Below, piece after piece: positions 1 to 12,574 of a stretch of 12,612 nucleotides of DNA. The position numbers and the translations under genes are program-made. Source of the DNA: Choanephora cucurbitarum (taxonomy: Eukaryota; Mucoromycota; Mucoromycetes; Mucorales; Choanephoraceae); the NCBI GenBank assembly GCA_025331435.1, contig JAIWNI010000289.1, forward strand, positions 1-12,612, in the 5' to 3' direction. Position 1 is the first letter of the stretch. Every line of letters begins with the position of its first letter. The notes beneath the pieces were generated by a model, which did not search any database, was not told the origin of the DNA, and saw only the letters and a list, made by a program, of their open reading frames with translations.

Positions 1-2030
1 ACAGTCGAGGCCGAGATTAACATAGGTGAAGTAGTGACAGATTCAGTTGGCGAAGATGGTGATGATCTAGGTGGTGGCATACTTTCGTCACTTGAAATGG
101 GATCTTTACTGCTGGTTTCATCAGTGTCAGAGTCACTACTGCTAGATATGTGAATGAAGCTTATGGACGGCAGATGATGTATCTGGAGTTGTGATGATGT
201 TGATGTCTGAACTTCAGTATGAATTGTGGTGGAGTGAGAGTTCAAGTTGTCATGACTGGATATGACACTGGCTGCACTGCAGACGCTACCGGTATCGTTG
301 ATACCTTGTTCTTCTTCGGTAATCACATGATCTCTTTCAGAGATAGGCTTGTCCTCAAGATCTTGATTGTCTTCAACTTTTTGAGCCTCTTGACCTTCTT
401 GATCATTTGTTGCTTCACCATTATCCCGTTCCTGTTCATTCAAAATGATACTATCGGGTATGGAAACCATGTCTTCATCCGGTAATGATAAGAGGTCGTT
501 GTTACTTTCAGCGATTGACAGCATATCGTCATCTTGACTAATCGAGGAAGGTTGAGGGGTAGGCCTTGGTATATCAATTTGATTTGATGATGATGGTGGT
601 ACTGGTAAATTTATAGTCTCTGGAACTCTTTGGGGTGGTGGTATGTTCATAGGTGGCATGGGCAGACTGGCTTGACGAGGCAATATCATTACTGGGGTAC
701 TTGGGTCCACCCAGTCTTGTTGAAGAATGTTCTCTTTAGAGGCTTGTCTAACCATTCTGCGTGAGATGGTAGGATCATACCACGGTACGTCTGGTTTACT
801 TCCTTCAGCAGGCTTCAGTCTGTCAATATGAACCAGCGATTTCAGAGGCTCACCAGCCACGGTCTCCAACCGGTATGTACCATATTCTGGATATGACGCA
901 ACTACCATATATGGTCCCTTGAACCTTGGCTCTAGACCGTATCGACCTTCATGTGAGAGCATCACCATATCACCAGGTTCAAATGAAAGCTTTTTGATAT
1001 GCTCATCCCATCTCTCTTTGTCTTTTTCTGCAACAGCTTTGAGTCTGAATTCTGCAGCTGCTCTGTGCTGTCCAAGTTCTTCTAGTTCCCGCGAGGTAAT
1101 GTCTGCAATAGTACGAGGATCAGCTTTTGATGATCGATCTAAATATGGTTGTACTTCGTCTCCTGGTAGACGTGGCTCACGACCGTAGACCAAGAAAAAA
1201 GGTGAGTATCCTGTCGTACTATGTTTGCGAATACGAGTGGCCCACAAAGCTGAGTATACGAAATCGTCCCATCTGTGAATAGCTCCGTTGGTGTATTTTC
1301 TTAACATCTGTTTGATGATACCGTTATAACGCTCCACTTTACTATTGGTGCGAGGATGGAAGGCAGAGGTAAGTTTATGATTAGTGCCTACACGTTGGAG
1401 ATAGGCTTCAACCAGTCCACTGGTGAAATTGGCACCACGGTCAGTAATGATCTCAGAGGGGCACCCAAACTTCATGACAATCTCCTCGTATATGAAATCA
1501 GCCACAGTTTCTTGTGAGGCAATAGGGACTGCTTTGGCAATAGGCCAGTTGGTAAGTGAATCGACGGCGGTAAGTAACCACTTGTTCCCATTGATTGTAG
1601 TTGGGAGCTCGCCTACAAAGTCGAGGTGCCAACGGTCAAAGGCTTTGGGGATAGACAGTGGATGCATTACATCTTGATGGGCTTTCGATCGCCTACTGTT
1701 GACTTGGCATTGAGGGCATGTTTTGAGCCAGTCTTGAATGTCTCTCTTCATTGTAGGCCACCAATAGCGGGACTCCATCATATGACTCATCGTCTTAAAA
1801 CCGGCATGTCCGAACCCAACATGGTATTTCTCAACCCAATCGACTCTATCCTCAAAGGGAACGAACTGCACTTCCTTGATTTCAGTGGCTTCATTTGGCT
1901 TCTCCCCCCTCTTCAGTGTTACCTTACGGTAGACACGATTGTTGCGGACAACAAAATGAGGTCGTTGGGCTTCAACATGGTCTTTGAGTTGTTTGCATTT
2001 GAGTTTACTGATGTTCTCTTCTTTCAGATA
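1..2030 (-). CDS. Element A integrase with C-terminal extension (third frame of pol, partial)
   Basis: I translated this stretch by hand. It stays open in one frame from about 2030 to the window edge, and there is no start codon of its own because it continues pol after a frame change. It begins with a linker, then an HHCC zinc-binding domain (His codons at 1823 and 1808, Cys codons at 1718 and 1709, spacing H-X4-H-X29-C-X2-C). The DDE core follows, with Asp at 1622, Asp at 1442 and Glu at 1334 (D-X59-D-X35-E). A GPY/F module comes next (FKGPY, then SLVHIDRLK) at about 940-800. The rest is a long Pro/Ser/Thr- and Asp/Glu-rich tail with no chromodomain. Integrase inserts the cDNA into the genome. 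The active-site residues are intact, so only the frame change upstream separates it from RT. The missing C-terminus can be inferred from the LTR copy at 5857-6034. Confidence 0.93.
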
Positions 2031-2718
2031 CAAAGAGGCCAGTCGGCTTTCAACTCAGGTGACAATTGATCCCAAGTGGCATACAGAAAGTCTGGTTCCA
2101 TTGAGTCTACAAGAGGAAGTTCTGCTAGCTCGGAACTTCGTGACAAGGCATCAGCTACCGCATTGTCTTTTCCCGGTTTGTATTGTACATTGGGTGAGTA
2201 GAGTTCGTATTCGGCAATCCATCTAACCAAACGACTTGTAGGCTTAGCTTGCGACTGGAAGTAGAGGAGAGGCTTGTGATCACAGAGAACTGTATAACCT
2301 GCTTTACAGCCATCTACCAGACAGCGCCAAGTACGCAAGGCATGGATGATTGCTATAAGCTCTCGTTCCTGAGCGGGGAACTTTTGCTCTGCCAGCGACA
2401 ACTTTCGGGATTCGTATGCGATGGGGGCCCATGTGTTTGTCTGACGATCAGGTTGGAGTAACACAGCGCCAACACCGAAATCGCTAGCGTCTGTTTCTAT
2501 GCGAAAAGGGAGATCCAGATCTGGCAAGCGAAGTACCGGTGGAGATGTCAGCAATGTCTTGAGCTTGAGAAAACTGTCTTCGCATTGATTATTCCAAATA
2601 ATGGCTCTCTTTTTGGCACCAGTGCCGTGTGTTAGTTCGGTGAGTGGGGCGGCTATTGCGCTAAAATTGGGGCAGAACCGTCGGTAATGCTGTGCAAGAC
2701 CAATAAACTGTCGTACCT
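2024..2718 (-). CDS. Element A RT connection and RNase H (second frame of pol)
   Basis: This is the middle piece of element A pol, one frame over from the gag-RT frame. It is open from about 2718 (VRQFIGLAQHYRRF, the start of the RT connection) to a stop at 2024. A methionine codon at 2554 lies inside it, but the piece should be read as a continuation rather than a separate gene. The RNase H domain starts at ETDASDFG, with the first catalytic Asp codon at 2491. The QERELIA segment carries the catalytic Glu, CDHKPL the second Asp and ADALSR the last Asp. RNase H removes the RNA strand of the RNA:DNA hybrid during reverse transcription. The piece ends in DWPL followed by two out-of-frame residues and a stop. 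Element B continues in frame at the same point, which places the second missing base near 2031. Confidence 0.93.
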
Positions 2719-5475
2719 CTGCACATTAGTGGGCCGAGGCCAATTCTGAATGGCTTTCACTTTAGAGTCAGATGGTAAGATACCCTTAGCACTAATCTTG
2801 AAGCCCAGAAACTCTAGCTCGCGAGCAGCAAACGTACACTTCTTGACATTTAGTATAAGCTTAGCATCTTGAAGCCGTTTCAATATCTCAGTAACATGAC
2901 GTCGATGTTCTTCTTCGTTACGGCTGAAAATGAGTATGTCATCAAGATACACCAAGGCAAAACGATCGATACAACCATCTAAGACTTGGTTCATCATGGA
3001 TTGGAAAGTGGGGGGTGCATTACTCAAACCAAAGGGTAAAACTAAAAACTCAAATTTACCGTACCGCGTATTGAAAGCAGTTTTAGGGATATCAGAGTCT
3101 TGCACTCTTATTTGATGATAGCCGGACTTTAGGTCTAGTGTGGTGAAGTAGGATGCACCTTGCAAGTGATCAAGACATTCGTCGATTCGGGGCAACGGTG
3201 TGGCATTTCGTTTGGTCAAGCTGTTGATGGCGCGATAATCAATGCACATGCGCATTGATCCGTCCTTCTTCTTAACTAGTAAAACCGGAGAGCCCCAAGG
3301 GGAACTGCTGCGACGAATTAAGCCCAAAGACAAGAGCTCATTCAACTGTTTATGAAGTTCATCTAACTCGGCTGGACTCATACGAAATGGCATTCGGTTT
3401 ACTGGTTTAGCATCACCCGTATCGATGACATGCTGAACACCTCGTGCAGGTGGTAATCCAGGGAGAGAGTCCAAAAAGACAGCAGGGAAATCTTTGGGTA
3501 ACTCGGACCAAAAAGAGGTATTCTCGTTATCAGAAGCCGATGAAGGTAAATCGTCCATTAAAAATAAGAAACATGCTTGCGCACCCTCTTTTTCAACCGC
3601 TTTCTTGGCTTGTTGTTTTGACATTAGGTAGTTTAATGTAACAGGGGCCACAACATCATCAGTATCATGTCTCAAGTCATCATGAAGAGGCCAGATAGTA
3701 CCATCGGTACCAACATCAAGGCAACATGTGACAGACCAAGAGTCATTCAACCAGTTTGCTTTTGGCTTATGAGTTTTTAACCAAGAGCGGCCTAAGATAA
3801 CATCGAACTTCGTATCAAATACAAAGGCAGACATCGAACTTGAATGACCTTGTAAGTTAAGGTCGAATACCACGCGCTCTGTAATAGGAGAGGTGTTACC
3901 TCCTGCAGTCTCAACCTCACGTCCGTGAACATGATGATGCGTACCTGCTATCAATTGTGACACCCTAGGCGAGATGTAGTTCTCACTAGCACCGTTGTCA
4001 ATAAGAATGTGAACATCCAGCAGCGAACCATCAGAAGATGTAACTAAACCATGGTATAACGGCAAGTAACAAGATACGACGGTGTTTAAGTGCGAAAGAT
4101 GTACGGCATCTAGAGCAAGGGACGAATGGCTTAGACTTTGATTATGACTGATCGTGTCAGAACCTGTAGATATACCTGATATTCTAACGGGTAATAGTTC
4201 CATGGGTAGACGAGTAACGTTATTCGAAGAAGCAGACATCTTAACTGCGGTCGAAAGAGGAGTGAACTGAGATCCCAACTTAGGCTTACTTTGATAAGTA
4301 GTCTCAGACTTAATATGAGTGACCTCATTATGTGACTCATCTGATATAGAAGTCGTAGATACATAAGATGATGAATCAGTGACTTTATTATGAATGGTAG
4401 ACTTAGAAGAATGACTACGATCACAATCAGGTTCAGCAACAGTAGAATCGATAGCGTTTAAAGTGGAAGACTTGACACCAGAACCAGAAGAACTACCACG
4501 ATGACCACCTTGGTTGTGACGGTACTTGTCCTTCATTTTTGATTCATAGTTGGCTAAATCCTTAGCTCGAGTACGACATTCATTAATTTTGTGACCTTTA
4601 CGAGAGCAGTAATGGCAAGTACCAGAGAAAGGGGGACCACGAGCAGCACGGTTATCTTTGCTGTAAGTAGAATGATAGCCTTGTTGATGATGATTACGCG
4701 AGTGAAGAACATCACAATCCATAGGATCATTGAATGTTGATGATGGTTCAACGACCGTACCAGTATGGGCAGATGAGCGGAGAACATTAGGAGCATAACC
4801 ACTGTTTGTGGATTGTGTAGACGGATGATGAGCAGCCTCAAAGTCCAGAGCCTCACGAAGTACTCGCTCCATCGTACGGTCTTCAATACTGATACCCCGT
4901 ATGCGTTGGATGAGTTCAACCTCACGAAGACCACGAAAAAAGATGTCAAACAAGAACTGCTCCATGACTTGTTGAGCAGTCAGACCAGAAGTGTTTAGCA
5001 GCATGGATATGTCCATAAACGTATCAACGTAGGCTTGGATAGAGGACGTTTGGCGAGTGTTATAGAGACGATCACGCACCATGTCTTCTGCATTCGCAGG
5101 ACGAAAGGTGATGATTAAGAGATTTTTGAACGATGGCCAATCAGAAGGGCCGGTACCATTTATTTCTTGACTTGAAAACCAGGCTTCGGCACGACCAGAA
5201 AGAAGGGTACGAGCGAAACGGAAGGTTTGAACATCATCCCATGAGTAATACTCCTTTAGACGATCAATAGAACGAAGCCAGCTATCCAGTTTCCATACAT
5301 TTCGGCTCCCATCGTAAGCTTCAGGACGTTGCAATTGGATAGATGGGGGCTTAGCCAAAATGTTCTGAGAAGAATCGGCCGTCTGAGTTTGTAAGACCCT
5401 TGTCAATTGAGTCACGAAATCAATTACAGCAGGGTGTACGTTTGAGTCTTGAGCAGATTGATGAGAATTATCCAT
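2653..5475 (-). CDS. Element A Gag-protease-reverse transcriptase polyprotein (940 aa, broken after RT)
   Basis: The start is ATG at 5475, 235 bases inside the 5' LTR edge, matching the position of the element B start. Residues about 60-240 form a retrotransposon Gag capsid region (GRAEAWF, WPSFKN, then RDRLYN). A CCHC zinc knuckle, CHYCSRKGHKINEC, lies at residues 287-300. A Ser/Thr/Asn-rich linker of about 180 residues follows. The aspartic protease motif is LIDNGASENY with Asp at residue 493; position 494 is Asn where the family has Ser or Thr. RT then runs from about residue 690, with LDLKSGYHQ and the catalytic YLDD at 843-846. Gag, PR and RT share one frame, so no frameshift is needed between gag and pol in this element. 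After residue 919 the frame is lost by one base near 2719 and 21 unrelated residues precede the stop. Confidence 0.96.
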   Translation of the reverse strand: MDNSHQSAQDSNVHPAVIDFVTQLTRVLQTQTADSSQNILAKPPSIQLQRPEAYDGSRNVWKLDSWLRSIDRLKEYYSWDDVQTFRFARTLLSGRAEAWFSSQEINGTGPSDWPSFKNLLIITFRPANAEDMVRDRLYNTRQTSSIQAYVDTFMDISMLLNTSGLTAQQVMEQFLFDIFFRGLREVELIQRIRGISIEDRTMERVLREALDFEAAHHPSTQSTNSGYAPNVLRSSAHTGTVVEPSSTFNDPMDCDVLHSRNHHQQGYHSTYSKDNRAARGPPFSGTCHYCSRKGHKINECRTRAKDLANYESKMKDKYRHNQGGHRGSSSGSGVKSSTLNAIDSTVAEPDCDRSHSSKSTIHNKVTDSSSYVSTTSISDESHNEVTHIKSETTYQSKPKLGSQFTPLSTAVKMSASSNNVTRLPMELLPVRISGISTGSDTISHNQSLSHSSLALDAVHLSHLNTVVSCYLPLYHGLVTSSDGSLLDVHILIDNGASENYISPRVSQLIAGTHHHVHGREVETAGGNTSPITERVVFDLNLQGHSSSMSAFVFDTKFDVILGRSWLKTHKPKANWLNDSWSVTCCLDVGTDGTIWPLHDDLRHDTDDVVAPVTLNYLMSKQQAKKAVEKEGAQACFLFLMDDLPSSASDNENTSFWSELPKDFPAVFLDSLPGLPPARGVQHVIDTGDAKPVNRMPFRMSPAELDELHKQLNELLSLGLIRRSSSPWGSPVLLVKKKDGSMRMCIDYRAINSLTKRNATPLPRIDECLDHLQGASYFTTLDLKSGYHQIRVQDSDIPKTAFNTRYGKFEFLVLPFGLSNAPPTFQSMMNQVLDGCIDRFALVYLDDILIFSRNEEEHRRHVTEILKRLQDAKLILNVKKCTFAARELEFLGFKISAKGILPSDSKVKAIQNWPRPTNVQRYDSLLVLHSITDGSAPILAQ

Positions 5476-5709
5476 GTCAATTTAAGATTGAGAGGGTAAT
5501 AACAGAGAACAGATAAGGTGCAGAGAGAAAGAGAAAAAATCGGTGATGACAGTGATCGATGATTTTTGTAGGCGAAGGTAGACAGCAGAAGAAACACCCG
5601 TAGAAGAGTGCAGAAAATACCAGTAAATGGGGGACAAATAAAGTGAGAGAAAATAGACAACAACAGCAGGAAGAGAAAAAGAAAAAAATAATGCAGAGAT
5701 GCTACCAGT
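5476..5709 (-). other. Element A PBS and 5' leader
   Basis: This is the untranslated leader between the 5' LTR and the gag ATG. Read on the minus strand it opens with a 2-nt spacer and the primer-binding site, then becomes pyrimidine-rich, with long C/T tracts, up to the start codon. Two open frames in it (5424-5663 and 5482-5793) show no domain, overlap the gag start or the LTR, and are not supported as genes. Confidence 0.75.
5696..5707 (-). promoter_or_regulatory. Element A primer-binding site (tRNA-primed minus-strand DNA synthesis)
   Basis: On the minus strand this reads TGGTAGCATCTC, starting 2 nt from the LTR edge. TGG is the complement of the CCA 3' end of a tRNA. The same 12 bases occur at the same place in element B, so both should use a tRNA ending GAGAUGCUACCA. 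The implied A1:U72 acceptor pair with A73 is typical of eukaryotic initiator tRNA-Met, but the exact tRNA cannot be fixed without the genome. Confidence 0.85.
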
Positions 5710-5838
5710 TGTCAGCTTCACGTGGGTATGAAAGTAAGTGATCCAACTATTACGCCTGTGAAACTGATATATAGTGTGATCACTGTGATTCAAAGATATT
5801 AAAAAGATAAAGACTTTATAATATCTTTTATCACAGCC

Positions 5839-5846
5839 TATTTATA
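5839..5846 (-). promoter_or_regulatory. TATA box of element A 5' LTR
   Basis: TATAAATA on the minus strand, followed by GG, about 130 bases before the inner LTR edge. This fits a U3 promoter that transcribes leftward into element A gag. Confidence 0.6.
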
Positions 5847-5853
5847 CTACAAC

Positions 5854-6034
5854 TTATAAATGGTCCGGACCGGACCGGCGCTGCCGCTTGGCCGGGCTGC
5901 TGTTATTAAGCTTTGGCTTAAACTTGCGTTTCTTGTTTACGTTCCAGTTGCGTAGGAACGCAGGGACATCCTCAGTGTTGGCAAAGTCCAACTTCACTTG
6001 GTTGCTAAGAGAACTGTTATTTATTGCTATGACA
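5854..6034 (-). other. LTR copy of the element A pol C-terminal tail (basic, NLS-like)
   Basis: In the 3' LTR, outside the window, the same sequence would be the end of pol; here, in the 5' LTR, it is an untranslated copy. The first LTR base is the third base of an Asn codon, then 59 codons follow before TAA. The encoded tail contains NKKRKFKPKL and, after a short spacer, PAKRQRR: two clusters of Lys/Arg like a bipartite nuclear localisation signal. Element B has the same arrangement in the same phase, with NKKRFKPQL, and there the join to pol is directly visible. Translation of element A through its own 3' LTR is inferred from this parallel. Confidence 0.7.
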
Positions 6035-6037
6035 TTA
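6034..6037 (+). repeat. Target-site duplication of element B, left copy (ATTA)
   Basis: ATTA directly before the 5' LTR; the same four bases follow the 3' LTR at 12377-12380. The first base is also the last base of the element A LTR. Confidence 0.8.
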
Positions 6038-6317
6038 TGTCGTAGAAAATAACGATTTAAAGCATAAACAGCCAATCGAAGTCGAATATAACTTGCCCTT
6101 TATGTATAATCCAAATAAGAAAAGGTTCAAACCCCAACTGTTGAACAAGAGAAGAAAGAAGACCCGATTGAATCTCATTTGTACAAAGCGTTTACCTTTT
6201 GGAAAAAGTCAGACACGTCTCTAATTCGTCAACGAACAACAATCAATCAAGTTGGAGTATTTAATTGCTTCCTTCTTTATTTAACATAGTATGAATATTT
6301 AGTATAGATAGAAAAAG

Positions 6318-6325
6318 TATAAATA
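6318..6325 (+). promoter_or_regulatory. TATA box of element B 5' LTR
   Basis: TATAAATA, about 238 bases before the inner LTR edge, well placed for an RNA start within the LTR that reads through gag-pol. The same octamer serves element A on the opposite strand. The copy in the 3' LTR is at 12139-12146. Confidence 0.6.
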
Positions 6326-6353
6326 CCGTGTTGTTGAATATTATAAGCTCTTT

Positions 6354-6447
6354 ATCTTAGACTTATAATATCAAAACACAGGTAACATAACTTAAAGAAA
6401 TATAAAATAAAATAAAAAGATCTTAGACTTATAATATCAAAACACAG
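6354..6447 (+). repeat. 28-bp direct repeat pair within element B 5' LTR
   Basis: An identical 28-bp unit beginning ATCTTAGACTTATAATATC occurs at 6354-6381 and 6420-6447, starts 66 bp apart, with an A-rich spacer. It is repeated in the 3' LTR at 12175-12202 and 12241-12268. Lying downstream of the TATA box, it may be in R/U5, where it could hold processing, termination or packaging signals. The role is unknown. Confidence 0.85.
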
Positions 6448-6508
6448 ACAACGTCACTGTCTTCTAGAACTATTTCCAGTAATCTGATTGGCTAAAAATA
6501 CTTCTAAA

Positions 6509-6518
6509 GTCACGTGAC
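6509..6518 (+). promoter_or_regulatory. GTCACGTGAC palindrome (E-box-like) in element B 5' LTR
   Basis: A perfect 10-bp palindrome with a CACGTG core, the site type bound by bHLH factors such as fungal Cbf1/Pho4 relatives. Element A carries CACGTG at 5719-5724, also near the inner end of its LTR. Binding is not shown. Confidence 0.35.
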
Positions 6519-6557
6519 CTGCTGTAGACATCCTTAACAAAATATCAAGACGACAAT

Positions 6558-6569
6558 TGGTAGCATCTC
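6558..6569 (+). promoter_or_regulatory. Element B primer-binding site
   Basis: TGGTAGCATCTC starts 2 nt after the LTR end and matches element A over 12 bases. With a one-base gap the match extends into TGC. It would pair with a tRNA whose 3' end is GAGAUGCUACCA. Confidence 0.87.
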
Positions 6570-6734
6570 CTGCTGTATCTCTGGACCTATTGCTTCCTGC
6601 CTGCCTTTGTGCTGATCTATTGACTTACCTGAATTAATTTACTGTTTGCCTCTGTACTGTTTACTGGTTGCCTCTGTGCTGCTTATTGTTTATCTCTGTG
6701 AATCCTGCCTTGTTGAACTAAAAAAAGAAAAAAA
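6570..6734 (+). other. Element B 5' leader with short tandem repeats
   Basis: Non-coding leader between the PBS and the gag ATG at 6735. It contains about three imperfect 22-bp tandem units at 6646-6667, 6668-6689 and 6690-6711, built around TGCCTCTGTRCTG, and related single copies earlier near 6601. The last 15 bases before the ATG are nearly all A, a favourable start context in fungi. The repeats may be part of a packaging or dimerisation signal, but nothing in the sequence proves this. Confidence 0.7.
6646..6711 (+). repeat. 22-bp imperfect tandem repeats in element B leader
   Basis: Three adjacent 22-bp units; the first two are clearly alike (TTGCCTCTGTACTG and TTGCCTCTGTGCTG), the third more degenerate. 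Confidence 0.65.
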
Positions 6735-7100
6735 ATGTCCGCTGAAAATACCGCTCCTATTATGAATGAAAATTCTGCCATTGCATCGTTAATCCAAGAA
6801 TTTACTAAAGCATTGACTATGAACAATGGTAACCGAGTACCTCGTACACAAGAACCTCCTACATACGATGGCGCTCGTGATGCTATGATAATTGATTCGT
6901 GGATCCGTACCTTCGAACGATATACCGATTTTCAAGGCTGGGATTCTGTGCAAAAGAAAAGGTATGCTGTTACCTTACTCCGCGGACGAGCTGATACCTG
7001 GTATCGCACACTCGAATCTGGTGAAGATGAACCGGAAGACTGGTTGACCTTCAAGAGAGAACTCGTCGAATTTTTAGACCTGACGATTCGGTACGTCTAG
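6735..7100 (+). CDS. Element B Gag, N-terminal part (cut short by a frame change)
   Basis: Starts at the ATG at 6735 in an A-rich context. It encodes the first part of the capsid protein: PPTYDGARD, then LLRGRADTWY and WLTFKRELVEF, which align with YDGSRN, LLSGRAEAWF and WPSFKN in element A Gag. Gag assembles the virus-like particle in which reverse transcription takes place. After codon TTT at 7071-7073 the frame is lost within a run of five T and a stop follows at 7098-7100. The rest of the same domain continues in another frame from 7073. One additional T in the run would make it continuous with the next piece. Compared with element A, in which this domain is one frame, this looks like a one-base loss or a sequencing error. 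Confidence 0.88.
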   Translation: MSAENTAPIMNENSAIASLIQEFTKALTMNNGNRVPRTQEPPTYDGARDAMIIDSWIRTFERYTDFQGWDSVQKKRYAVTLLRGRADTWYRTLESGEDEPEDWLTFKRELVEFLDLTIRYV

Positions 7101-7591
7101 CCCGTGATAGGTTGGCAGCTTATCGACAAAACGGCTCTTTGAATAACTATGTCAATGGATTCATGGACATTATTGCTGCAATTCCTGGCATAACTGAAGA
7201 TGAATCTTGTGACAAGTTCATGCGTGGACTGTCCAACCGCGACACTCGTTCCCAAGTACGCCAAGCACAATCCGCTACCTTGAGAGACGCTGTTCGTGTC
7301 GCTATTGCCCATGATAGCGCAATCTATGAGAGTCCATCCTTTTACCGCCGTAACACTGAAAACGTGAACTACAACCGTCCTCCCAGAAGACCTTATGCTG
7401 GTGAACCTATGGACTTGAGTATGATGGCTTCTTCTTCTCGAGAAAATGTTCGATGTCACTACTGTGGTAAGACTGGCCATATTCGTCGATACTGCAAGGT
7501 GCGCGCTGAAGAGATCCGTCAGATGGAACAAGACCGTTATCTCAAAGTGAATAAGGGTAGTAATGCGGGTTCATCAAAGGATTTTCATTAA
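7073..7591 (+). CDS. Element B Gag, C-terminal part with CCHC zinc knuckle
   Basis: Continues Gag from FRPDDSVRLARDRL, which matches FRPANAEDMVRDRL in element A, so translation should enter here from the frame of the preceding piece rather than start anew. The second half of the capsid domain is followed by the nucleocapsid knuckle CHYCGKTGHIRRYC at 7454-7495 (C-X2-C-X4-H-X4-C), which binds element RNA and tRNA. The frame ends at TAA 7589-7591. The pol frame is already open from 7564 and lies -1 relative to this one, giving a 28-nt overlap. In element A, gag and pol are one frame, so the break here could be a one-base loss in the T4 run 7582-7585, or a -1 frameshift site. No canonical slippery heptamer was found in the overlap. 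Confidence 0.9.
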   Translation, partial: FRPDDSVRLARDRLAAYRQNGSLNNYVNGFMDIIAAIPGITEDESCDKFMRGLSNRDTRSQVRQAQSATLRDAVRVAIAHDSAIYESPSFYRRNTENVNYNRPPRRPYAGEPMDLSMMASSSRENVRCHYCGKTGHIRRYCKVRAEEIRQMEQDRYLKVNKGSNAGSSKDFH

Positions 7592-10500
7592 ACCTAGTTG
7601 ATGAACAGGAAGTTCAACTAGGTGAAGATGTCCAAAATCTTCCTGATAACGATGGCCGTATTGATGCAGCTTGTACATGTTCAAGTAAAACAATTAATAA
7701 AGTTGATCATTCTACTCCCTATTCTTCTATCGTTGATATTGAAAACTGTAATAATGACTCTGTTGCAAGTGATGAACCGGTTGCAAAAGAAAATGAAGCT
7801 GTCAAAGAACCAAGTACTACGAGATATAATGCTGTAACAGAATTGGTGCCTATCGTACACCCAAGTGAAAGCCTAAAAGAAGAATTTCAGTACTTGTCTG
7901 AATTAAACACTGTAGCAACAAAACTACCTCTGTATCATGGATGTATCGACGACGCTTCTCTAGAAGTACTCATTGATAGTGGTGCAAGCGAGAACTACGT
8001 GTCTCCCATGGTTGCCAAGTATGCGGTCTCTTCCACCCCAATCTATGATCGACAGGTAGAAACTGCTGGTGGCGAGACTACTGTAATCAAAGAGAAAGTC
8101 GAAGTTATGTTAGACTTGAGTGGTTTCAAGACGAAGGTAGTTGCTTACGTATTCCCTACCAAGTTTGACGTTATCTTGGGGCGAACATGGCTGAAGGAAG
8201 TGGACCCCAGACCTGAATGGTCTACAGATACTTGGTACATTCAAAGCAAGGACAAAAAACAAAAGGTCAAGTTGACTCCTTCGAATAACTATCACAGTCA
8301 ATCACACCCTCAGCTGAATTACTTGATTTCGAAGAAACAAGCGGAAAAGAGTATTCGTCAAGGCGCTGATAGCTGTTTACTGTATCTGAATGTTACTGAG
8401 TCCAAGGACAAGGATTCCATGCTTGTAAAAGAAGAATACTGGGATAACCTTATCAAGGAATTTTCCTCAATTTTTCAAGAAGAATTGCCTGGTATTCCGC
8501 CCAAACGTGACGTAACACATGTCATTGATACTGGTGATGCAAAGCCGATTAGCAGACCACCATTCAAGATGAGTCCTGCTGAATTGGATGAATTGCAGAA
8601 ACAAATCAAGGAACTGCTTCAACTGGGTCTAATCCGCCCAAGTGCTTCACCTTGGGGTGCTCCAGTCCTCTTTGTAAAGAAGAAAAATGGTGAAATGCGC
8701 ATGTGCATTGACTATCGTGCCTTAAATAGTGTCACTGTTAGGAACAATCACCCTCTGCCTAGAATAGATGAGTGTCTAGATCGTCTACAAGGAGCAAAGT
8801 ACTTTACAAGTCTCGATTTGAAGTCTGGATACCATCAAGTACGCATTCAACCAGAAGATGTTCCAAAAACTGCATTCAATACTAGATATGGTCAGTTTGA
8901 ATTCTTGGTTCTGCCATTTGGATTAACCAATGCACCACCTACGTTTCAAAGTTTGATGAACAAGGTGTTGGGCAACTATCTGGATAAGTTTGCGCTGGTA
9001 TATCTTGATGATATCCTTATCTATAGCAAGTCCTTAGAAGATCATCGAAGACATGTACGCTTGATTTTGGAGAAACTTAAAGAGGCTCAATTGATCGCTA
9101 ATCTAAAGAAGTGTGAATTCGGAAAACGTGAATTAACCTTTGTTGGATTCGACATCACTGCCAATGGAATTCTGCCTAGCCGTGCCAAAGTAGAAGTTTT
9201 GAAATCATGGCCAGTACTGACAAATGTTCAAGAAGTAAGATCGTTTATCGGACTAGCTCAGCACTACCGTCGATTTATACCTGGTTTTGCTTCTATAGCG
9301 TCTCCATTAACTGATCTTACGAAAGGTACTGGACCAAAACGCCGCCCTATTGTCTGGACTGCTGAATGCCAAGAGAGTTTCGACAAGATCAAAGCATTGA
9401 TGGTTTCTGCACCGGTATTGCAAGCACCGAATATGGAAAAGCCTTTTCGTGTAGAAACAGATGCGTCTGATTTCGGATGTGGTGCTGTTCTTCTACAGCC
9501 TGACGACAACGATCCTCCTCTGTGGCATCCTGTGGCGTATGAATCCAAGAAGTTTTCCTCAGCGGAACGCAACTACCCAGCACAAGAAAGAGAACTGATG
9601 GGAATCTTACATGCTCTTCGTACTTGGCGATGCTTCTTAGATGGCTGTCATGGTGGGTACAAGATACTTACAGATCACCTGCCAAACTGCTATTTGAGAA
9701 CACAAGAAAAAATGAGTCCGAGATTGGTGAGATGGATGAACGAATTGGAGCTATATTCACCTACCATTGAATACAAGCCTGGTAAGGAGAACAATGCTGC
9801 CGATGTTCTATCCAGAATAGGTGGACCTGACACTGATGTGGCTGATACTTCCTTGGAGCCTGATTTTCTGTATGCTACTTGGACGATGAAAGATGCTCCT
9901 GAGTCAATTCAGAATGACTGGCCTTTGTTATACACCAACTTGGATCGAATCAAATCTGCAGATTTGCGCAAATACCTGGATGAAAGACAAGACAGATTTA
10001 TTGTTCAAGACAATAAAGTACTTCACAAGGTAGTTATCGATGACAAAGAAACGATAAAGGCTGTACCCTTCGTTCCTTTTGCTGCTAGAGCCGATCTGGT
10101 AGCACGTTATCATGAATCCAATGGACATGCTGGTTTAAAGACAATGATTAAATTGTTTGTACCTCGCTTTTGGTGGCCAAGTCTGAAACGTGATATCAAG
10201 GATTGGATAAAGACCTGTCCTTCCTGTCAAGTCAACAGCCGACCTGGTCATATTCACCACGATGTCATGCATCCTCTAAAAATACCTACTGCCTTTGATC
10301 GCTGGCATTTGGATTTTGTAGGAGAATTGCCTCTAACTGTCAAAGGTAATCGCTGGTTACTGGTCGCTGTGGACTATGCCACAAACTGGCCTATCGCTCG
10401 TGCTGTGTCTGCTGCCACCAAGGAAACTGTCGCCGATTTTATCTACGAGGAAATCATGATGCGTTTCGGTTGTCCTTCTGAGATTCTGACCGATCGAGGT

Positions 10501-12045
10501 GCCAACTTCAACAGTGATTTAGTTAATGCATATCTGAAGCGTGTAGGCTCTCATCACAAGTTGACCTCGGCTTATCACCCAAGAACTAACTCGAAAGTTG
10601 AGCGCTTTAACGGTGTTATTAAGGGTATGCTGCGAAAATACGTGAATGGTGCACTTCATCGCTGGGACGATTTCGTAAATGCGGCACTTTGGGCTTCAAG
10701 AATTAGGGTGCACAATACTACAGGTTACAGTCCGTTCTACTTGACATATGGACGTGAGCCAAGACTACCTGGTGATCCCTTAATACCGTATATCGACAAG
10801 ACAACTTTCAATGATCAGCGAACTGTTGCTGATATTACATCAAGAGAGCTTGCTGAACTAGGACAACATCGTGCAGCAGCCGAATTCCGCATGAAAGCTA
10901 TGGCTGAAAAGGACAAGGATCAGTGGGACTCAAAGATCAAAAAGGTTTCTTTCGAAATTGGTGACAAAGTAATGCTGACGCATGAAGGCCGCTATGGATT
11001 AGAACCAACCTACAAAGGTCCTTATGTAGTTGTACAATCATTCCCTGATTTTGGTACGTACAAATTACAAACCATTGCTGGCGAACCCGTACAATCCCTT
11101 GTCCATGTGGATCGATTACGACTTGCTACTGGTCATCAATCTGATGCCCCTTGGTATGATCCAGTCAAAGCTCGTCAAGAATGGCGTCAAGTTATGACCA
11201 ACATCGGACGCTCTGCTGTTATTCCAGAAGTACCACCTGTTGTTGTCACTAATGACATGGTTGTTGATCTCCCTTCTGTACCTGATGCTTCTGCTGTCGA
11301 ATATGACTCTTTTGATTCTGTACCTAATGCTCAAATTGATGTCGATTCAGATTCTCATTCTGTGGCTCACGTTGATACTGTTCCCTCTGAATCTCCAATC
11401 GACTATATCGATCCAGTTGAGCAACCTGCCTCACGTCAGCCTAGTACCGGTACTATAACTGCTGAACCGTTCTTGCCCTCTCTTGACCTGCCTGATGCCA
11501 CGGCATCTACACCTACATCTCCCCTCGCTGCTCCTTCTCCTGTTATTACTGACTCGTTACCAACGATACCTTTAGGAGACACGCTAGACGATTTGGTTGA
11601 TGATGCTATGCTAGATGCTAGTGTTGAGGTTGACAACGATGAATTTGTGGATGCTCAGGAAGACTTATCACCTCAAGAAGACGATTTACCCGACTCAGAA
11701 TTTAATTTCGATATTGATGTTGACGATGCTGAAGATTCAAATGAAGACATTGACCACTTTCAAGTTCCACTTGTGCCATCTACTGCTGTTTCTCCTTCTC
11801 CTACTGATAGTACTCCTTCAAAAGTTCAGAGCCGAACTTTAAGCCAGGAGGGGGGTAATGTCGTAGAAAATAACGATTTAAAGCATAAACAGCCAATCGA
11901 AGTCGAATATAACTTGCCCTTTATGTATAATCCAAATAAGAAAAGGTTCAAACCCCAACTGTTGAACAAGAGAAGAAAGAAGACCCGATTGAATCTCATT
12001 TGTACAAAGCGTTTACCTTTTGGAAAAAGTCAGACACGTCTCTAA
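7564..12045 (+). CDS. Element B Pol: protease, RT, RNase H, integrase and LTR-encoded tail
   Basis: The frame is open from 7564; no ATG fits the start and it probably continues Gag. Protease: LIDSGASENY, Asp at 7975. RT: LDLKSGYHQ and the catalytic YLDD at 9001-9012. RNase H: first Asp at 9460; its second Asp lies in the unusual DHLPN (DHKPL in element A). Integrase: HHCC with His at 10111 and 10126, Cys at 10216 and 10225; DDE with Asp 10312, Asp 10492, Glu 10600 (D-X59-D-X35-E). A GPY/F module (YKGPY, LVHVDRL) lies near 11010-11120. Then come about 240 residues rich in Ser, Pro, Asp and Glu, strongly acidic from about 11570. The frame passes through the polypurine tract (EGGN) and 62 codons into the 3' LTR, ending in a basic tail with NKKRFKPQL and NKRRKKTRL. 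There is no chromodomain. The cleaved enzymes would make and integrate cDNA. Confidence 0.96.
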   Translation, partial: CGFIKGFSLNLVDEQEVQLGEDVQNLPDNDGRIDAACTCSSKTINKVDHSTPYSSIVDIENCNNDSVASDEPVAKENEAVKEPSTTRYNAVTELVPIVHPSESLKEEFQYLSELNTVATKLPLYHGCIDDASLEVLIDSGASENYVSPMVAKYAVSSTPIYDRQVETAGGETTVIKEKVEVMLDLSGFKTKVVAYVFPTKFDVILGRTWLKEVDPRPEWSTDTWYIQSKDKKQKVKLTPSNNYHSQSHPQLNYLISKKQAEKSIRQGADSCLLYLNVTESKDKDSMLVKEEYWDNLIKEFSSIFQEELPGIPPKRDVTHVIDTGDAKPISRPPFKMSPAELDELQKQIKELLQLGLIRPSASPWGAPVLFVKKKNGEMRMCIDYRALNSVTVRNNHPLPRIDECLDRLQGAKYFTSLDLKSGYHQVRIQPEDVPKTAFNTRYGQFEFLVLPFGLTNAPPTFQSLMNKVLGNYLDKFALVYLDDILIYSKSLEDHRRHVRLILEKLKEAQLIANLKKCEFGKRELTFVGFDITANGILPSRAKVEVLKSWPVLTNVQEVRSFIGLAQHYRRFIPGFASIASPLTDLTKGTGPKRRPIVWTAECQESFDKIKALMVSAPVLQAPNMEKPFRVETDASDFGCGAVLLQPDDNDPPLWHPVAYESKKFSSAERNYPAQERELMGILHALRTWRCFLDGCHGGYKILTDHLPNCYLRTQEKMSPRLVRWMNELELYSPTIEYKPGKENNAADVLSRIGGPDTDVADTSLEPDFLYATWTMKDAPESIQNDWPLLYTNLDRIKSADLRKYLDERQDRFIVQDNKVLHKVVIDDKETIKAVPFVPFAARADLVARYHESNGHAGLKTMIKLFVPRFWWPSLKRDIKDWIKTCPSCQVNSRPGHIHHDVMHPLKIPTAFDRWHLDFVGELPLTVKGNRWLLVAVDYATNWPIARAVSAATKETVADFIYEEIMMRFGCPSEILTDRGANFNSDLVNAYLKRVGSHHKLTSAYHPRTNSKVERFNGVIKGMLRKYVNGALHRWDDFVNAALWASRIRVHNTTGYSPFYLTYGREPRLPGDPLIPYIDKTTFNDQRTVADITSRELAELGQHRAAAEFRMKAMAEKDKDQWDSKIKKVSFEIGDKVMLTHEGRYGLEPTYKGPYVVVQSFPDFGTYKLQTIAGEPVQSLVHVDRLRLATGHQSDAPWYDPVKARQEWRQVMTNIGRSAVIPEVPPVVVTNDMVVDLPSVPDASAVEYDSFDSVPNAQIDVDSDSHSVAHVDTVPSESPIDYIDPVEQPASRQPSTGTITAEPFLPSLDLPDATASTPTSPLAAPSPVITDSLPTIPLGDTLDDLVDDAMLDASVEVDNDEFVDAQEDLSPQEDDLPDSEFNFDIDVDDAEDSNEDIDHFQVPLVPSTAVSPSPTDSTPSKVQSRTLSQEGGNVVENNDLKHKQPIEVEYNLPFMYNPNKKRFKPQLLNKRRKKTRLNLICTKRLPFGKSQTRL
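11846..11855 (+). promoter_or_regulatory. Polypurine tract of element B (plus-strand primer)
   Basis: AGGAGGGGGG, followed by TAA and then the TG of the 3' LTR. Such purine runs resist RNase H and prime plus-strand DNA. Here the tract is also coding, read as Glu-Gly-Gly in pol. Confidence 0.85.
11859..12045 (+). other. LTR-encoded basic C-terminal tail of element B Pol
   Basis: Here the junction is visible: codon AAT spans the LTR boundary, its T being the first LTR base, and GTC GTA follow. The tail carries Lys/Arg clusters (NKKRFKPQL, NKRRKKTRL) after an acidic stretch. It resembles a nuclear localisation signal at the end of integrase; that role is inference. Confidence 0.85.
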
Positions 12046-12376
12046 TTCGTCAACGAACAACAATCAATCAAGTTGGAGTATTTAATTGCTTCCTTCTTTA
12101 TTTAACATAGTATGAATATTTAGTATAGATAGAAAAAGTATAAATACCGTGTTGTTGAATATTATAAGCTCTTTATCTTAGACTTATAATATCAAAACAC
12201 AGGTAACATAACTTAAAGAAATATAAAATAAAATAAAAAGATCTTAGACTTATAATATCAAAACACAGACAACGTCACTGTCTTCTAGAACTATTTCCAG
12301 TAATCTGATTGGCTAAAAATACTTCTAAAGTCACGTGACCTGCTGTAGACATCCTTAACAAAATATCAAGACGACA
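11859..12376 (+). repeat. Element B 3' LTR (518 bp)
   Basis: Same sequence as 6038-6555 at a constant offset of 5821 bases, ending CGACA before the ATTA duplication. The last 62 codons of pol occupy its first 187 bases, with the stop TAA at 12043-12045. The TATA box is at 12139-12146 and could drive transcription toward the tRNA-like gene and the flank. Confidence 0.97.
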
Positions 12377-12380
12377 ATTA
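12377..12380 (+). repeat. Target-site duplication of element B, right copy (ATTA)
   Basis: ATTA directly after CGACA of the 3' LTR, matching 6034-6037. The target is AT-rich, so a chance match of four bases is possible, but the position is exact. Confidence 0.8.
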
Positions 12381-12391
12381 AAATTTTTTAA

Positions 12392-12459
12392 GTTATGGTT
12401 CAGTGGTATGACATTGGCTTGTCACCCGAGAGGTTTTAGGTTCAACTCATGGTGGGAAC
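12392..12459 (+). pseudogene. Degenerate tRNA-like gene, Asp(GTC)-like anticodon
   Basis: An A box, TGGTTCAGTGG (12396-12406), fits the Pol III consensus fully. A B box, GGTTCAACTCA (12439-12449), fits at all but one base. Between them, a loop with TTGTCAC places anticodon GTC at 12421-12423, suggesting tRNA-Asp. The 3' end TGGGAAC would pair with GTTCCCA, but the 5' end reads GTTA, as if three bases were lost. The anticodon stem lacks one G, and the T stem has a mismatch. The length is 68; adding the four missing bases gives 72, the normal length without CCA. T-runs follow at 12461-12465 and 12475-12484, usable as Pol III terminators. It could be a tRNA pseudogene, the head of a tRNA-derived SINE, or a real tRNA with sequence errors. 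Confidence 0.6.
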
Positions 12460-12574
12460 ATTTTTGTGACGCAATTTTTTTTTTATTTTTTTATTAAATT
12501 TAAAATTGAATGAAAACTTTTTCACTTCATAGTTCTTTTTGTTTCTTACGAAATATTATATATTTTTATTTAAT
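12460..12574. other. AT-rich flank
   Basis: T-rich, with runs of up to ten T after the tRNA-like gene and long A/T stretches. No gene or repeat is seen in it. Confidence 0.6.

What the first reader, a model, noticed from the sequence alone, without database searches (positions are those of the whole stretch)
11840..12045. Pol reads through the polypurine tract into the 3' LTR, which encodes a conserved basic tail
In element B the pol frame passes the PPT (EGGN) and uses the first 187 bases of the LTR, ending in NKKRFKPQL and NKRRKKTRL. In diverged element A, the LTR begins in the same phase (the first base completes Asn, then Val) and encodes 59 codons with NKKRKFKPKL and PAKRQRR. The LTR start is thus both a recombination/integration end and protein coding, and the basic clusters survive although the rest of the LTR differs. 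An acidic stretch precedes the tail in both. A nuclear localisation or chromatin-targeting role for integrase is likely by analogy with the C-terminal bipartite signal of Ty1 integrase, but the LTR-encoded placement is unusual.
Basis: partly seen in the sequence, partly recalled or inferred. Interest (0 to 1): 0.8.

Follow-up and report, generated by a model that had tools for sequence, protein, structure and literature searches.

The report
Integrase tail encoded inside the LTR
In a group of fungal jumping genes related to yeast Ty3, the gene for the DNA-inserting enzyme runs on into the element's repeated end, and that stretch codes for a conserved, positively charged tail that probably helps bring the enzyme into the nucleus and perhaps to its tRNA-gene landing sites.

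Summary
In element B the pol frame (7564-12045) crosses the polypurine tract and uses the first 187 bases of the 518-bp 3' LTR. All 13 assessable B-type pol 3' ends read (8 distinct elements) cross the LTR edge in one phase. In the LTR-coded core pN/pS is 0.26; in the integrase GPY/F region 0.18, in the linker 0.82, in wrong frames above 1.4. Neutral simulation never kept all 8 frames open (0 of 2000). Element A's 3' end is off the contig, but two relatives read intact into their LTRs in the same phase. Non-basic segments of the tail are conserved too. Mucorales proteins show the same layout; a neighbouring group mostly does not. At five sites an LTR ends 9-11 bp upstream of a called tRNA gene (three more by eye, 8-12 bp). 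The integrase extension is predicted disordered, without a chromodomain; a nuclear-import signal, possibly doubling as a tether as in Ty1, is the likeliest role, untested. Placement is not unprecedented: published Ty3 coordinates imply its pol runs about 49 nt into U3. New variant of a known kind; the long conserved tail was not found described in the searches made.

The parts
7564..12045 (+). pol ORF of element B: protease, RT, RNase H, integrase, long C-terminal extension, LTR-encoded tail
   Evidence: open frame; Pfam protease, RVT_1, RNase H, Integrase_H2C2, rve
11701..11727 (+). short acidic motif FNFDIDVDD in the otherwise variable linker; a related motif in all 8 distinct B-type elements
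   Evidence: alignment
11846..11858 (+). polypurine tract AGGAGGGGGG plus TAA, read in the pol frame as ..EGGN; the tract's TAA lies in another frame
11859..12376 (+). 3' LTR of element B, 518 bp, TGT...ACA, identical to the 5' LTR; TATAAA at LTR nt 281, downstream of the stop codon
11859..12045 (+). LTR-encoded end of pol (187 nt including the stop)
11890..11919 (+). QPIEVEYNLP, the best conserved part of the tail in the B-type
11935..11955 (+). basic cluster 1, NKKRFKP (basic F-x-P core, shared with A-type and many Mucorales homologs)
11965..11982 (+). basic cluster 2, NKRRKK
6038..6555 (+). 5' LTR of element B (identical; not preceded by pol, so not coding here)
6034..6037 (+). ATTA, 5' copy of the 4-bp target-site duplication; its first base is also the first base of element A's LTR
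12377..12380 (+). ATTA, 3' copy of the target-site duplication
12389..12460 (+). degenerate tRNA-Asp-like sequence (A box 12396-12406, B box 12440-12448), about 12 bp from the LTR end; read by eye, not called by ARAGORN or Rfam
5710..6034 (-). 5' LTR of element A
5857..6033 (-). 59 codons in element A's LTR in the same phase (FANTEDVPAFLRNWNVNKKRKFKPK..PAKRQRR)
21..2054 (-). element A integrase part of pol, cut by the contig start before its 3' LTR

Best explanation
A group of Mucorales-type Ty3/gypsy elements carries the last 60-91 codons of pol, that is of integrase, inside the U3 part of the LTR. Shown by sequence: the pol frame crosses the PPT and the TG end of the LTR in a fixed phase and ends upstream of the TATA box, so U3 at the 3' end of the genomic RNA can be translated; the segment is under protein-level selection; several of these elements sit about 10 bp upstream of tRNA genes. 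Inferred: the tail is the disordered, conserved C-terminus of integrase after a long flexible extension, its two basic clusters act as a bipartite nuclear-import signal, and the conserved residues beside them probably contact a host protein, perhaps of the Pol III machinery.
For: Frame and phase. Selection: pN/pS 0.264 over the LTR core against 0.815 in the linker and 0.176 in the GPY/F region, wrong frames 1.41 and 1.44; four non-overlapping pairs give 0.18-0.27, each Fisher p below 4e-4; simulated neutral minimum 0.62 of 400, all frames open 0 of 2000. A-type 0.29 against 2.13 and 1.13 in wrong frames. Depth: 24 of 120 listed homologs show the PPT-like peptide plus a basic F-x-P core by pattern, clustered on the tree. 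NLS-like content. Predicted disorder of integrase residues 419-693. tRNA-gene sites. Ty1 precedent for a targeting domain inside a bipartite NLS: PMC9673352 passages, PMC10050235 abstract and introduction.
Against: No localisation, binding or transposition data. 7 of 24 homolog tails lack the NLS-like pattern. Conserved segments without basic residues are not explained by an NLS. That the tail stays on mature integrase, with no protease cut before it, is assumed. The model's disorder rests on a 36-row alignment of moderate quality (mean pLDDT 62.9, pTM 0.39). A largely tail-less neighbouring group exists, and one of its rows (P0073) is annotated Rhizopus delemar RA 99-880; strain 99-880 is the one in which Ty3-like elements were reported near tRNA genes, so the tail may not be needed for tRNA targeting.
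Confidence: 0.6

Rival explanations
1. The tail is an NLS and no more; targeting comes from the integrase CTD and other regions, as in Ty3 where CTD and chromodomain contact TFIIIB.
For: NLS-like clusters; Ty3 uses CTD and chromodomain (PMC8632968 passages); the WYDP..ARQ-WR-VM..GR segment after GPY/F is also conserved here.
Against: An NLS needs few residues (general knowledge), yet QPIEVEYNLP (B) and FANTEEIPAFLRNW (A) are as conserved as the basic clusters.
Confidence: 0.3
2. The tail binds the element's own nucleic acid or RT (PPT/U3 end, cDNA) and aids reverse transcription or intasome assembly.
For: Strongly basic; Ty1's IN C-terminus also stimulates its RT (PMC9673352 passage).
Against: No direct evidence; the long predicted-disordered spacer is also typical of host-binding peptides.
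Confidence: 0.2
3. The LTR start is conserved for DNA or RNA reasons (att site, PPT/U3 recognition, promoter) and the open frame is incidental.
For: The first LTR bases and the PPT are conserved; over 7 aligned LTRs nucleotide identity of the coding core (0.69) is no higher than of neighbouring non-coding LTR (0.70).
Against: Differences are largely synonymous: without the first 10 codons third positions take 59% of them against 35% in the linker and pN/pS is 0.20, and neutral simulation does not keep the frames open.
Confidence: 0.03

Closest known systems
Ty3 of Saccharomyces cerevisiae (Ty3/gypsy, Metaviridae)
   Same: Ty3/gypsy domain order, insertion just upstream of tRNA genes, integrase with HH-CC, core and SH3-like CTD; published coordinates imply pol also runs about 49 nt into U3 (PMC11381356 passages).
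   Different: Ty3 has a chromodomain after the CTD (PMC8632968 passages); none is predicted here and the C-terminus is long and disordered. About 16 LTR codons in Ty3 against 62-91 in the B-type here. No sequence match of B's C-terminus to any PDB chain, Ty3's included.
Tj1 of Schizosaccharomyces japonicus
   Same: Ty3/gypsy element inserting 5-11 bp upstream of mature tRNA 5' ends, in tRNA orientation (PMC4600332 passages), as the four B-type copies next to called tRNA genes do here.
   Different: Whether Tj1 pol enters its LTR was not stated in the passages seen.
Ty1 integrase C-terminus (bNLS with AC40-binding targeting domain)
   Same: Disordered C-terminal region with a bipartite basic signal in an element that targets Pol III genes (PMC9673352 and PMC10050235, passages and introduction).
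   Different: No sequence homology was looked for or shown; likeness is by analogy. Whether Ty1 pol enters its LTR was not checked.
Rhizopus oryzae Ty3-like LTR elements
   Same: Mucorales Ty3/gypsy elements reported to co-localise with tRNA genes (PMC2699053 passages); Rhizopus proteins are among the homologs.
   Different: No LTR-encoded tail is described in the passages seen; Rhizopus rows fall in both tail-bearing and tail-less groups.
Retroviral genes that enter U3 (HIV nef, MMTV sag) - recalled, from no call
   Same: A reading frame running through the PPT into U3.
   Different: Those are separate accessory genes, not the integrase C-terminus.

Membership tests
Ty3/gypsy LTR retrotransposon | PR-RT-RNaseH-IN order in pol | tested here: met
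   Pfam matches in that order
Ty3/gypsy LTR retrotransposon | identical LTRs with TG..CA ends, PPT, PBS, target-site duplication | tested here: met
   518-bp identical LTRs, PPT, 4-bp ATTA duplication; TGGTAGC.. starts 2 nt after the LTR (likeness to a tRNA-Met PBS is recalled)
Ty3/gypsy LTR retrotransposon | GPY/F module in integrase | tested here: met
   KGPYVVV..HVDRL
Chromovirus / Ty3-type integrase with chromodomain | chromodomain after the CTD | tested here: not met
   no Pfam chromodomain listed at E up to 10; AlphaFold model disordered from residue 419
Pol III-targeted (Ty3-like) element | insertion within tens of bp of tRNA genes | tested here: met
   B-type gaps 9, 11, 9, 10 bp to tRNA genes called by ARAGORN and Rfam and 10 bp for A-type C294; not at every site (C39, C221, C251_1 show none)
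Ty1-like integrase tail | functional bipartite NLS | not testable with these tools
   pattern only
Ty1-like integrase tail | binding to AC40 or another Pol III component | not tested
   -

The most novel reading that the evidence does not exclude
The LTR-coded tail is the target-site module of integrase: it tethers the enzyme to the Pol III machinery, and its placement in U3 keeps the integrase C-terminus physically linked to the very DNA end that integrase recognises, so that LTR exchange or template switching moves end and specificity together.
Probability: 0.15. Interest if true: 0.8.

Novelty: new variant of a known kind. Interest (0 to 1): 0.58.

Why it matters
One stretch of DNA serves as integrase substrate, primer border, repeat copied to both ends and protein-coding sequence. 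It offers a conserved short peptide as a candidate for how Mucorales Ty3 elements enter the nucleus or find tRNA genes without a chromodomain. It also warns that annotation which cuts pol at the LTR edge would lose the best conserved part of the integrase C-terminal extension.

Tried and rejected
Protein search with the tail region alone found nothing at E 1e-3; the RT-IN region found homologs whose C-termini could then be read. My first automatic sorting of those C-termini used a too narrow GPY/F pattern and is superseded; four A-type-like rows (P0023, P0026, P0035, P0113) were missed by the pattern as well and were labelled as tail-bearing by eye for the tree (three of them are among the 86 tree rows; 89 rows were eligible, 3 dropped for short coverage). 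Looking for the motif in other genomes' DNA failed (17 stretches, no relative), so the LTR position of the tail in other genera rests on the PPT-like peptide, not on LTR sequence. ARAGORN and Rfam did not call B's tRNA-like flank. PDB sequence searches for the C-terminus gave nothing. Row B_5LTR was started one base out of phase; its LTR equals the 3' LTR. C154 and C178 gave no usable 3' end.

The literature searches were full-text term searches of an open-access library and cannot show absence elsewhere; of most listed papers I saw only the listing.

Limits: the 'short' rows (40 rows) may include truncated gene models, so the contrast between groups is a lead, not proof, and the root is not inferred. 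The linker alignment is uncertain, which makes its pN/pS rough. dS is saturated in 17 of 28 pairs for the LTR core. Copies within one genome may have recombined. Loci were found by searching with the tail and LTR themselves.

Full report
What was checked. The window is a 12,612-base contig of an unnamed 33.4-Mb genome. The closest protein relatives that carry a name are mostly from Mucorales fungi: Mucor, Parasitella, Choanephora, Rhizopus, Absidia, Circinella and Lichtheimia. It holds two Ty3/gypsy elements head to head: A on the minus strand, whose 3' end is off the contig, and B on the plus strand, with both LTRs. B's LTRs (6038-6555, 11859-12376) are identical, 518 bp, with a 4-bp ATTA duplication. 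The pol ORF 7564-12045 carries protease, RT, RNase H and integrase.

The frame through the PPT. In B the frame reads ..VQSRTLSQEGG-N-VVENN.., where Asn is completed by the first LTR base, and stops after 187 LTR bases. I read 14 oriented B-type 3' ends; one ends before its LTR. Of the other 13, 13 continue across the edge in the same phase, and 12 of 13 are open for 60 codons upstream in that frame. C39_58k is broken further upstream; C39_40k crosses open but its more upstream residues are out of the pol frame. They make 8 distinct elements; the rest are tandem or near-identical copies. LTR coding length runs from 187 to 274 nt, upstream of the TATAAA box at LTR nt 278-284 in these copies. Among 36 B-type LTR rows (5', 3' and solo), 34 of the 35 correctly phased rows have at least 43 open codons; in three of them (C258, C80, C112) the LTR's own 5' end is missing or unrecognisable, so the first codons counted are not LTR. 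The exception is the 5' LTR of C124_350k, with a stop after 22 codons while its 3' LTR is open. B's 5' LTR row was mis-phased and equals its 3' LTR. Some old copies do carry in-frame stops or shifts later on (for example C357_12k, C295 and C112). All rows were found by searching with the tail or LTR, which favours copies that keep them. Two more pol relatives, C154 and C178, are too damaged to tell.

Selection. On 8 distinct elements (28 pairs), pN/pS is 0.264 for the LTR core and 0.196 without its first 10 codons; 0.176 for the GPY/F region; 0.815 for the linker; 0.747 for the acidic motif to PPT. Reading the LTR core in the other two frames gives 1.41 and 1.44. Third positions hold 53% of the differences in the core (59% without its first 10 codons) against 35% in the linker. 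Four non-overlapping pairs give 0.26, 0.25, 0.18 and 0.27. Neutral simulation along the core's tree gave a mean of 0.87, minimum 0.62 of 400; all eight frames stayed open in 0 of 2000, on average 1.15 of 8. The A-type gives 0.29 over 49 codons of 4 rows, against 2.13 and 1.13 in the wrong frames. Against an easy reading: over 7 aligned LTRs the nucleotide identity of the coding core (0.69) is not above that of the neighbouring non-coding U3 (0.70), so the signal is in the codon pattern, not in overall conservation; dS is saturated in 17 of 28 pairs, and copies from one genome may have recombined.

What the tail looks like. B-type: KQPIEVEYNLPxxYNPNKRRFKPQxxNKRRKKxRLNL. A-type: DFANTEEIPAFLRNWNxNKKRKFKPK..SPAKRQRR. 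Both share a basic F-K-P core and a second basic cluster. Of the 120 listed homologs (3390 at E 1e-100), 32 do not reach the GPY/F module by my pattern, 24 show a PPT-like peptide plus a basic F-x-P core, 5 the peptide with a tail without that core, 8 the peptide with a tail under 20 residues, and 51 no PPT-like peptide (40 with a short and 11 with a longer extension). Four of those 11 (P0023, P0026, P0035, P0113) do show both features by eye. On an 86-row RT-IN tree all 28 rows labelled as tail-bearing (window and C294 rows included) fall in a 36-row group (support 97) or a 7-row group with Rhizopus rows (100); a 33-row group between them (99) holds 29 rows that end soon after GPY/F and none labelled tail-bearing. 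FastTree supports are local, the root is not inferred, and short rows may be truncated models. AlphaFold (36-row alignment, mean pLDDT 62.9) models integrase up to about residue 415 and leaves 419-693, tail included, almost wholly below pLDDT 50; no chromodomain appears there or in Pfam at E up to 10.

Target sites. Directly after the 3' LTR, in the same orientation, lie tRNA-Leu (gap 9 bp), tRNA-Pro (11), tRNA-Arg (9) and tRNA-Asn (10) genes, called by ARAGORN and by Rfam; Pro and Arg flank two copies of one element type at different sites. By eye only: a degenerate tRNA-Asp-like sequence after B (12 bp) and tRNA 5' halves after C251_5k (8) and C235 (11). No tRNA was seen after C39, C221 and C251_1; other 3' ends were truncated, degenerate, at a contig end or followed by another element. 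The A-type element of C294 has its 5' LTR end 10 bp from a tRNA gene, in the opposite orientation. New elements land at the edge of older ones: a B-type LTR follows an A-type LTR end with only the 4-bp CCGT between them, and two LTRs in C326 are 4 bp apart. In the window, B lies 3 bp from the end of A in a similar way. This resembles the behaviour reported for Tj1 and Ty3 (PMC4600332, passages).

Reading. Shown: an LTR-coded, selected, phase-locked pol C-terminus in two lineages of this genome, and insertion next to tRNA genes. Inferred: that it stays on integrase, nuclear import by the basic clusters, host contact by the other conserved residues. The Ty1 integrase C-terminus, with a targeting stretch inside a bipartite NLS (PMC9673352 passages; PMC10050235 abstract and introduction), is the nearest functional model. 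The Ty3 coordinates in PMC11381356 (passages) imply that Ty3 pol enters U3 by about 49 nt; that is my subtraction, not the paper's statement. So the arrangement itself has a precedent, while the long conserved tail is, as far as these searches show, undescribed.

Noticed in passing
L003:2330-2700 and 47 genome matches: A repeat of roughly 330 bp lies 36-115 bp downstream, same strand, of 23 of 52 listed tRNA genes, and within 300 bp upstream of none of the 52 (both lists are partial): apparently a second tRNA-targeted mobile element, on the other side of the gene, like TRE3 or Skipper-2 of dictyostelids (PMC5006619 passages).
   Followed up: partly
L015 (minus strand) from 1260 down; L061 from 3538 on, ORF 3819-7001 minus: In C251_5k and C235 a tRNA 5' half ends after GCTCAG and continues into the same non-LTR element (endonuclease and RVT_1 in Pfam), as if a LINE inserts into the tRNA D-arm/A box. 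Two cases only.
   Followed up: partly
L003-L005, L008 (C124:42186-60400): Three B-type elements in tandem sharing LTRs, period about 5898 bp, with CAAA at both outer ends; real array or assembly product not resolved.
   Followed up: no
L012-L014 (C39): A 17.4-kb spacing of three near-identical, frame-damaged B-type elements with short satellite-like repeats next to their 3' LTR.
   Followed up: no
window 6717-7591: Gag of element B is spread over two overlapping frames (6717-7100, 7031-7591) before pol at 7564; frameshift site or damage not resolved.
   Followed up: no
window 12175-12213 and 12241-12279: An imperfect 39-bp direct repeat (90%) within the LTR downstream of the TATA box, also visible in several relatives' LTRs.
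   Followed up: no
P0085: A retroelement protein of this kind listed under a Leuconostoc mesenteroides MAG: likely contamination.
   Followed up: no
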